Shown piece by piece: positions 20,401-58,729 of a stretch of 64,000 nucleotides of DNA; positions within the stretch are counted from its first letter, which is position 1, and each line of letters begins with the position of its first letter. Where the stretch lies: positions 310,001-374,000 of the forward strand of contig CAMIZL010000001.1 of NCBI GenBank assembly GCA_946403295.1, read 5' to 3'. This DNA is from an uncultured Clostridia bacterium (GTDB lineage: Bacteria; Bacillota; Clostridia; Lachnospirales; Lachnospiraceae). The notes beneath the pieces were generated by a model. It was given only the letters and a program-made list of their open reading frames with translations, made no database searches and was not told the origin of the DNA. Both the position numbers and the translations under genes were made by a program.

Positions 20401-20524
20401 ATCGAGTAGGCTGACTCCTACTCGATGCGACGGGACATCTCGCGTACAAGACCGCTCGATGTCCGTTCACTCAGCCGTCTGTTCACAAACAAGCTTGCAA
20501 CAGACGGCCTTCGCTTATCGCACA
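20401..20524 (-). repeat. 124-bp multi-hairpin dispersed element, copy 1
   Basis: The minus strand of this segment matches 58606-58729 (plus) in 123 of 124 bases; the one difference is at 20451. Read on the minus strand it folds into three hairpins: a 10-bp stem with CAAGCTTG in the loop, a middle helix GGACATC-GA-GC / GC-GA-GATGTCC with tandem G.A pairs, and a 10-bp ATCGAGTAGG stem. It starts a few bases after the T-tract of the LPKTG gene terminator at 20529-20558. Open frames within it share a protein segment only because the DNA repeats; I do not regard them as genes. Confidence 0.92.
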
Positions 20525-56639: not shown

Positions 56640-56878
56640 GGGTTGTCTCCCATGTCTTTTGGTCGCATTTCATGCGACTACTTCGTTTGGTCGCCTGATA
56701 CATCTCGCAAGCAAAGCTTGCTCGATGTACGTGCACTCGACTCTCGGTCACGCAGGCTGCGCCTGCTATGCTGCTTCAGTAAATTTTTTGTGTTCGAAGA
56801 TAAAAAACAATCTTCAAAACAAAAATTTTACTTCGCATCAATGCTCGCTACGCGAGCACCGAGAGTGCTCGTTTAACA
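56640..56878 (-). repeat. Multi-hairpin element, divergent relative of the 124-bp repeat
   Basis: The 240 bases between the T-box terminator and the synthetase start are non-coding and full of short hairpins (GCAGGC/GCCTGC, GCTCGC/GCGAGC, GAAGAT/ATCTTC). On the minus strand the part around 56700-56740 reads GAGTGCACGTACATCGAGC...GCGAGATGT and aligns with GAGTGAACGGACATCGAGC...GCGAGATGT of the 124-bp element. Both keep the tandem G.A helix; the pair just outside ACATC/GATGT is U-A here and G-C in the other copies. The element follows the T-box terminator T-tract directly. Confidence 0.7.
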
Positions 56879-56880
56879 CA

Positions 56881-57164
56881 AAAAAAGAAAGTCCGTCTCA
56901 ATTACTTGAGACGGACTGTAATCCGCGGTACCACTCAACTTGTATATGAAAGATCATATACCCCTCACAGGCTCCATCAAGCCCTGTGCACTAACGTAGC
57001 ATTCACGGAAGACATCTACTTGGGAGAACGATCCCTTTCGGGCCTTCGGCTCAGAAGTGATAGAAAAAATGAACATCTCGATCTGCTCTCACCAATGCAG
57101 TTCTCTCTGTACAGACTACAATCAAGTTTTCGTCTTCGTCACGGCCTTTGTCTGTGTTAAATTA
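56881..57164 (-). ncRNA. T-box riboswitch leader, probable Ile (AUC) specifier
   Basis: On the minus strand all parts are in order: stem I with GACGAAGA and CAGAGAG/GGTG-like distal parts, a specifier region CTATCACTTCTGAGCC, the T-box motif GTGGTACCGCGG (56923-56935 on the plus strand) and a terminator of a 12-bp stem (56890-56901 with 56906-56917) followed by TTTCTTTTTTT. Placing the GAAG/CTTC helix under the specifier loop leaves ATC followed by A, so Ile is the best reading. The T-box TGGT would pair with a tRNA having A73, which tRNA-Ile has. It controls the synthetase fusion downstream. Confidence 0.88.
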
Positions 57165-58605: not shown

Positions 58606-58729
58606 GTGCGATAAGCGAAGGCCGTCTGTTGCAAGCTTGTTTGTGAACAGACGGCTGAGTGAACGGACATCGAGCGGACTTGTACGCGAGATGTCCCGTC
58701 GCATCGAGTAGGAGTCAGCCTACTCGATT
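58606..58729 (+). repeat. 124-bp multi-hairpin dispersed element, copy 2
   Basis: The plus strand is 123/124 identical to the minus strand of 20401-20524. Three hairpins: 58622-58631 with 58647-58656 (loop contains CAAGCTTG), 58666-58676 with 58687-58697 (GGACATC helix interrupted by tandem G.A pairs), and 58704-58713 with 58720-58729. It starts in the last T of the terminator of the upstream GGDEF-PAS gene and ends 6 bases before the stop of the converging transpeptidase gene. Confidence 0.92.

What the first reader, a model, noticed from the sequence alone, without database searches (positions are those of the whole stretch)
58606..58729. Element copies always begin at the T-tract of an intrinsic terminator and point the same way
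At 58606 the element starts in the last T of the GGDEF-PAS terminator. At 20524 it begins four bases after the LPKTG terminator stem. At 56878 the divergent form begins straight after the T-box terminator. In each case the strand with the G.A helix is the same strand as the terminated transcript. Three out of three in different gene contexts argues for an element that is part of, or is targeted to, transcript 3' ends: a post-terminator RNA, a readthrough-dependent stabiliser, or a terminator-seeking MITE.
Basis: partly seen in the sequence, partly recalled or inferred. Interest (0 to 1): 0.85.

Follow-up and report, generated by a model that had tools for sequence, protein, structure and literature searches.

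The report
Terminator-targeting mobile structured RNA element
Gut and rumen Lachnospiraceae carry many copies of a tiny, tightly folded genetic element that sits right behind the stop signals of genes; its tail looks like the tail of a known self-splicing jumping intron, so it may be a miniature hitch-hiker on that intron.

Summary
The 123-nt element occurs in 19 of 24 genomes of the genus. In 125 of 137 5'-complete copies it starts directly behind a hairpin plus T-run, against 126 of 1370 random windows and 7 of 136 at the other end; other T-run ends are terminator-like in 148 of 758, copies preceded by TTTTT in 75 of 81. At 6 of 10 sites aligned, relatives have the homologous terminator without the element, so it is a mobile insert, not part of the terminator. 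It is too short for an ORF and shows no inverted ends. It has two hairpins with compensatory changes (17 of 38 predicted pairs) and a nearly invariant 3' hairpin ending CCTACTCGAT. Group IIC introns, retroelements that also insert after terminators, end the same way in 13 of 20 copies read, including the fragments in this genome. Best reading: a non-autonomous RNA-based satellite using group IIC-type targeting. That the intron machinery moves it is inferred; several genomes with young copies show no intron, seven of 20 introns end slightly differently, the 5' consensus fails in other genera, and catalytic domains are absent.

The parts
   Evidence: sequence; one search rule (gene name not checked by me)
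58606..58728 (+). full-length element copy, GTGCG...CCTACTCGAT
   Evidence: 136 bits
58621..58655 (+). hairpin 1 (compensatory changes; site of an extra ~88-nt hairpin in the long form)
58608..58612 (+). possible 5' side of closing stem P0 (GCGAT), pairing with 58698-58702 (GTCGC); well supported in other lineages, weak here
   Evidence: 27% of cross-lineage pairs score as high for this lineage; RNAalifold of the genus pairs these bases otherwise
58698..58702 (+). possible 3' side of closing stem P0
   Evidence: same reservation
58703..58728 (+). hairpin 3, nearly invariant 26-mer, domain VI-like, ends like many group IIC introns
20401..20523 (-). second full-length element copy
   Evidence: 133 bits
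   Evidence: gene name not checked by me
56673..56879 (-). divergent, longer form starting GTGTTAAACG; hairpin 2 kept, hairpin 3 sequence not kept
   Evidence: (23 bits, E 0.011)
56880..57151 (-). T-box leader (56904-57151, 83 bits, below Rfam cut-off) with its terminator hairpin 56890-56917 and T-run 56880-56886

Best explanation
The element is a mobile, non-autonomous structured RNA element of about 123 nt that inserts, in one orientation, at the T-tract side of intrinsic terminators. Shown: terminator association, presence/absence at orthologous terminators, a conserved fold (hairpins 1 and 2 with compensatory changes, an almost invariant hairpin 3), and a 3' end identical or nearly identical to that of group IIC introns. 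Inferred: its plus-strand RNA is recognised as intron-like because of the domain VI-like hairpin 3, and is put into hairpin-plus-T DNA by the group IIC intron protein (with or without intron RNA) acting in trans, then copied to DNA. It would be a satellite of group IIC introns, as SINEs are of LINEs. Insertion leaves the terminator intact, so it costs the host little; repeated insertion at the same stem pushes older copies downstream, where they decay.
For: Terminator and orientation statistics. Homologous terminators without the element in two or more relatives at 6 of 10 aligned sites: L004, L007, L008, L010, L016, L018. 3' decamer CCTACTCGAT in 108 of 114 3'-complete copies and at the 3' end of 13 of 20 group IIC intron copies read, among them L041 and the three G000 fragments at C44, C63 and C11; in G019 copies L105, L177, L180, L182 and L184 the match to L041 runs over 16 nt, CCGCCTCCTACTCGAT, though no L041-type intron was found in G019 itself. 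The Rfam domain V/VI consensus ends alike, cCUACCCcAu. 5' GTGCG in 116 of 120 copies, as in L041. First base after the element is T in 81 of 114, after those introns in 17 of 20. G-U cells 64 against A-C 14 and P0 complementarity that follows lineage (0 of 2000 permutations reach it) favour plus-strand RNA. Introns and elements share sites: contig ends L081/L074 read as an intron inside an element after GTGCGA, introns directly before an element (L292, L302) or an intron start directly after one (L279).
Against: No domain V or I-IV; no Rfam match of group II type at E<=10 in two copies tried. The branch-site A of domain VI is paired with U in hairpin 3. Seven of 20 introns end otherwise: CCTACTTGAT in three of four copies of Butyrivibrio FCS014 and in G001, although G001 elements end CCTACTCGAT; CCTACTCTAT in MC2021; CTCCTATCGAT twice in G223, whose elements end CCCTATCCGAT; L065 could not be read and L438-type details rest on one copy. 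5' GUGYG is lost in other genera (GTTGCACAAG in Butyrivibrio, GTTATAC in G209), so the 5' match may be chance. By eye, element and intron start a few bases apart behind the stem. Co-occurrence is loose: G003, G010, G019, G023 have many copies but no L041-type intron hit and G008 only a weak one, while G004, G011 and G018 have intron hits and one or no element match; complete genome G254 has copies but no group II protein over the cut-off; of 11 isolates with copies 5 are over the cut-off, 6 not (two partial, one at 171 bits, two weak, one none). Truncations are mostly at the 3' side (29), not the pattern of reverse transcription breaking off. The G-U excess is partly built in, because the predicting program accepts G-U and not A-C.
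Confidence: 0.42

Rival explanations
1. DNA-based satellite: a MITE-like element whose single-strand DNA hairpins are recognised by a transposase of the IS200/IS605 (Y1) or another type and joined behind hairpin-plus-T targets.
For: A hairpin at the 3' end and a hairpin target; one orientation; no visible duplication; many copies.
Against: No Y1 transposase in the own genome (0 matches; not tested in relatives, and draft gaps that hid the intron could hide one). No inverted ends by inspection. G-U over A-C excess and the lineage-matched P0 stem point to RNA. No exact hairpin-3 26-mer in viral contigs; no match of one Butyrivibrio-type stretch in plasmids or of the window copy in phages.
Confidence: 0.27
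2. Template switching at the replication fork: the nascent strand stalled at a terminator hairpin re-primes through its T-tract on another copy and copies it, without any dedicated enzyme.
For: Copies start after T; 5' end fixed while 3' ends vary (29 3'-truncated copies); tandem decayed copies.
Against: Complete copies share one 3' decamer (108 of 114; selected by a model that favours it); hairpin 3 is the best conserved part, across genera; 3' truncation is also expected if deletions that remove the terminator are selected against.
Confidence: 0.16
3. Host RNA element: a conserved 3'-end structure that stabilises or regulates transcripts reading through terminators.
For: Conserved fold on the strand of the upstream transcript; some truncated copies abut ribosome-binding sites (L109, L116, L122-L124).
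Against: Absent at orthologous terminators; near-identical copies at many sites of one genome; decayed tandem copies.
Confidence: 0.1

Closest known systems
Group II introns of class C (IIC)
   Same: Insertion at or right after intrinsic terminators (PMC4424553 and PMC8919778, passages seen); 3' end CCTACTCGAT in 13 of 20 copies read; GUGCG start as in L041 in this genus.
   Different: 123 nt instead of about 1.9 kb; no protein, no domains I-V found; branch A paired.
ORF-less bacterial group II introns
   Same: Would depend on a protein in trans; PMC4424553 (passages) says they are rare and nearly always live in genomes with related introns.
   Different: Those keep the ribozyme (recalled); this keeps at most a domain VI-like end.
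Group III introns of Euglena chloroplasts
   Same: Size (about 90-120 nt, sometimes only domains I and VI; PMC4424553, passages).
   Different: The element is not shown to be spliced, does not interrupt genes in the copies seen, and is dispersed after terminators in bacteria.
BOX, RUP and SPRITE repeats of pneumococcus (PMC3049150, passages; PMC10969869, passages)
   Same: Short, structured, intergenic, clustered and inserted into one another; SPRITE resembles terminators.
   Different: BOX and RUP have inverted ends and target duplications, SPRITE AAAA/TTTT ends; the passages seen do not report insertion behind terminators in one orientation.

Membership tests
Group II intron, class C | insertion immediately behind intrinsic terminators, same strand | tested here: met
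   125 of 137; 61 of 62 contexts in named records
Group II intron, class C | catalytic domain V | tested here: not met
   no RF00029 match at E<=10 for the L001 and L177 stretches; intron L041 matches at 48 bits
Group II intron, class C | domains I-IV | tested here: not met
   no match; L041 matches RF02001 and RF01998
Group II intron, class C | intron-encoded reverse transcriptase/maturase | tested here: not met
   element is 123 nt; the protein (464 aa from the first ATG) is in intron L041
Group II intron, class C | 5' GUGYG and 3' AY ends (recalled consensus) | tested here: inconclusive
   GTGCG 116 of 120 and ...GAT in all 114 3'-complete copies of the genus; 5' consensus not kept in Butyrivibrio, G209, G034
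Group II intron, class C | domain VI with bulged A 7 nt from the 3' end (recalled) | tested here: inconclusive
   A at that place and a stem like that of L041, but the A is paired with U in the predicted fold
MITE | terminal inverted repeats | tested here: not met
   ends GTGCGATAAGCG and reverse complement ATCGAGTAGGCT, by inspection
MITE | target site duplication | tested here: inconclusive
   no empty site alignable on both sides of the joint (0 of 155 joined flanks at the settings)
IS200/IS605-mobilised hairpin element | Y1 transposase present in the genome | tested here: not met
   PF01797 0 matches in own genome, a draft; not tested in relatives

The most novel reading that the evidence does not exclude
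A bacterial counterpart of SINEs and of spliceosomal introns: a mini-intron of ~123 nt that has given up the whole group II catalytic core, keeps only recognition ends, and is spliced out and reverse-spliced behind terminators by the core and protein of a full group IIC intron acting in trans.
Probability: 0.23. Interest if true: 0.95.

Novelty: new variant of a known kind. Interest (0 to 1): 0.73.

Why it matters
No retro-satellite (a SINE-like parasite of a retroelement) is known to me in bacteria (recalled). If the link holds, Butyrivibrio and its kin would offer a living intermediate between self-splicing introns and introns whose catalysis is supplied in trans, in cultured isolates. Even without the link, an element family without a credible Rfam match, found behind terminators in nine of ten copies, is a clean system for asking what recognises a terminator hairpin in DNA, and it marks transcript ends across Lachnospiraceae genomes.

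Tried and rejected
Reverse transcriptase in the own genome: none by PF00078; intron fragments lie at six contig ends (a seventh, weak match is internal), so I read the absence as an assembly gap. An A-tailed minus-strand RNA primed by the T-tract (LINE-like) was considered and put aside because wobble pairs favour plus-strand RNA. A closing stem with the downstream flank was an accident of this one copy; P0 replaces it. The composite in L147/L167 first looked like a mobile unit; both share the same downstream locus, so it is one site. The looser terminator rule was dropped for its high background. Precise empty joints: none. Rfam on two element copies: nothing credible. Library searches for print on such an element: no papers; none described it by the titles and abstract starts listed; passages read of four papers. 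In one search three further loci (L441, L446, L447) were not read to a 3' end.

Full report
What is there. The window copy at 58606-58728 (+) and the one at 20401-20523 (-) are members of a 123-nt family; 56879 and downwards (-) is a divergent longer relative. The own genome has 52 matches, including a long form with an extra hairpin of about 88 nt in hairpin 1 (L022-L029, L037, L038). 19 of 24 genomes of the genus have matches. A model built from 40 copies finds it in 9 of 299 genomes drawn from the family, two of them in the genus (strict filters, so a lower bound). None in viral contigs.

Terminators. Of 137 copies with 5' end and enough upstream DNA, 125 are terminator-like (hairpin of -8 kcal/mol or better, ending within 12 nt, three or more T in the last eight), against 126 of 1370 random windows and 7 of 136 on the opposite strand at the 3' end; stricter rule 112 of 137, 42 of 1370, 1 of 136. 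T-tracts alone do not explain it: 75 of 81 copies preceded by TTTTT against 148 of 758 other T-run ends. Nine of the 12 misses gain a hairpin when longer upstream windows are allowed, under a rule with high background. In named records 61 of 62 contexts with a recognised 5' end, 40 of 41 for lineages other than the window's type. In a further genus, G223, the starts of the copies printed likewise follow hairpins and T-runs by eye.

Mobility. At ten own-genome sites aligned with relatives, six show the homologous terminator hairpin without the element in at least two relatives (L004, L007, L008, L010, L016, L018); at the other four the intergenic stretch has changed too much or carries another terminator. 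At the L010 site other relatives carry a complete (L225) or a truncated copy (L260). Gain and loss cannot be told apart at each single site. The downstream sides are too diverged to read the exact joint. Downstream neighbours such as CTCGAT|TGCGATAAG or |CGATAAACG are starts of further copies, often truncated, which fits new copies entering next to the stem. 109 copies are full, 29 lack the 3' part, and 6 were flagged as lacking the 5' part, of which L013 is the copy split by an intron, L009 a partial tandem repeat, L154 has an internal deletion and L173 and L176 lie near contig starts. In a 3'-ascertained set a few 5'-truncated copies exist (L345, L350, L358, L364, L388, L404). The asymmetry may come from copying or from selection to keep the terminator; I cannot separate these.

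Fold. RNAalifold on 40 copies: 38 pairs, 17 with changes on both sides, all before hairpin 3; hairpin 3 is nearly invariant. Wobble cells are 64 G-U and 14 A-C, which favours plus-strand RNA, with the reservation that the program counts G-U and not A-C as a pair. In 13 lineage representatives the first 14 nt pair with the 14 nt before hairpin 3 better within than between lineages (mean 12.7 against 9.8; 0 of 2000 permutations). This stem P0 is clear in G223, L341, Butyrivibrio XPD2002, L331 and L376 (at most 4.5% of cross pairs reach it), middling in G209, G000, G254, L390 and G178, and not seen in G034, G010 and G007; in the window's own genus RNAalifold pairs the 5' bases otherwise.

Link with group IIC introns. 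A full intron sits in G004 (L041:885-2822; RF02001, RF01998, RF00029), with a reverse transcriptase (464 aa from its first ATG). G000 has its ends at six contig ends, three 5' and three 3', so about three copies were lost in assembly; the three 5' ends follow terminators by eye. Of 20 group IIC-type intron 3' ends that I could read, 13 end CCTACTCGAT (L041, L074, L077, L079, L293, L296, L435, L436, L437, L439, L440, L452, L455), four CCTACTTGAT (L063, L445, L451, L454), one CCTACTCTAT (L438) and two CTCCTATCGAT (L292, L302); L065 was unclear, L042 (another class) ends CCTACTCGAC, and L043, L441, L446, L447 gave no end. The decamer is that of 108 of 114 3'-complete elements. It is close to the general group II consensus, so it shows group II likeness rather than descent from one intron. 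Domain VI of L041 and hairpin 3 share GAG..AGG/CCU-A-CUC-GAU, but the element has a U facing the branch-site A. The base after the intron is T in 17 of these 20 (not in L439, L292, L302), after the element in 81 of 114. Against: points listed under Best explanation.

Literature. PMC4424553 and PMC8919778 (passages) state that class C introns insert at or immediately after terminators, and PMC4424553 that ORF-less introns are rare in bacteria. The 2007 PNAS paper on this was not held. No paper describing this element was found in searches of the open library; subscription papers are largely missing there.

Verdict. Observation confirmed and strengthened; a mobile terminator-targeting structured element (I would put 0.95 on that); moved by group IIC machinery (0.42).

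Noticed in passing
L122:1501-1536 (G000:C6:64136), L123, L124, L100: A remnant of hairpin 2 sits between a terminator and the ribosome-binding site of a gene starting MRLDKYLKVSRLIKRR (S4-domain by eye) at the same place in three species, with a similar one in G022; an old shared copy, perhaps used as a leader.
   Followed up: partly
L116, L117, L109: 3'-truncated copies end right before the ribosome-binding sites of genes whose starts read like dihydrofolate reductase (G013, G005) and ispE (G005) (names by eye).
   Followed up: no
L279:1501-1665: Element in G062 followed directly by the first bases of a group IIC intron, GTGCGCCTAGCGGCGCATG; no Rfam group II match in that locus at the gathering cut-off.
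   Followed up: partly
window 56904-57151 (-): Clear T-box leader that Rfam's gathering cut-off misses (83 against 93 bits).
   Followed up: no
L113, L120, L118, L127, L115, L112: Relatives of the divergent form, with variable hairpin 1, near T-box-like sequences in several genomes, in tandem in G016 and G020.
   Followed up: partly
L345, L358, L364, L388: 5'-truncated copies in which hairpin 3 lies shortly behind what looks like a stop codon and is followed by T's, perhaps having taken over as the terminator (by eye).
   Followed up: partly
L445, L451, L454 (Butyrivibrio FCS014), L063 (G001): Group IIC introns ending CCTACTTGAT, one base off the ending of the elements.
   Followed up: no
L064:1918-2004: c-di-GMP-I riboswitch (66.8 bits).
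   Followed up: no
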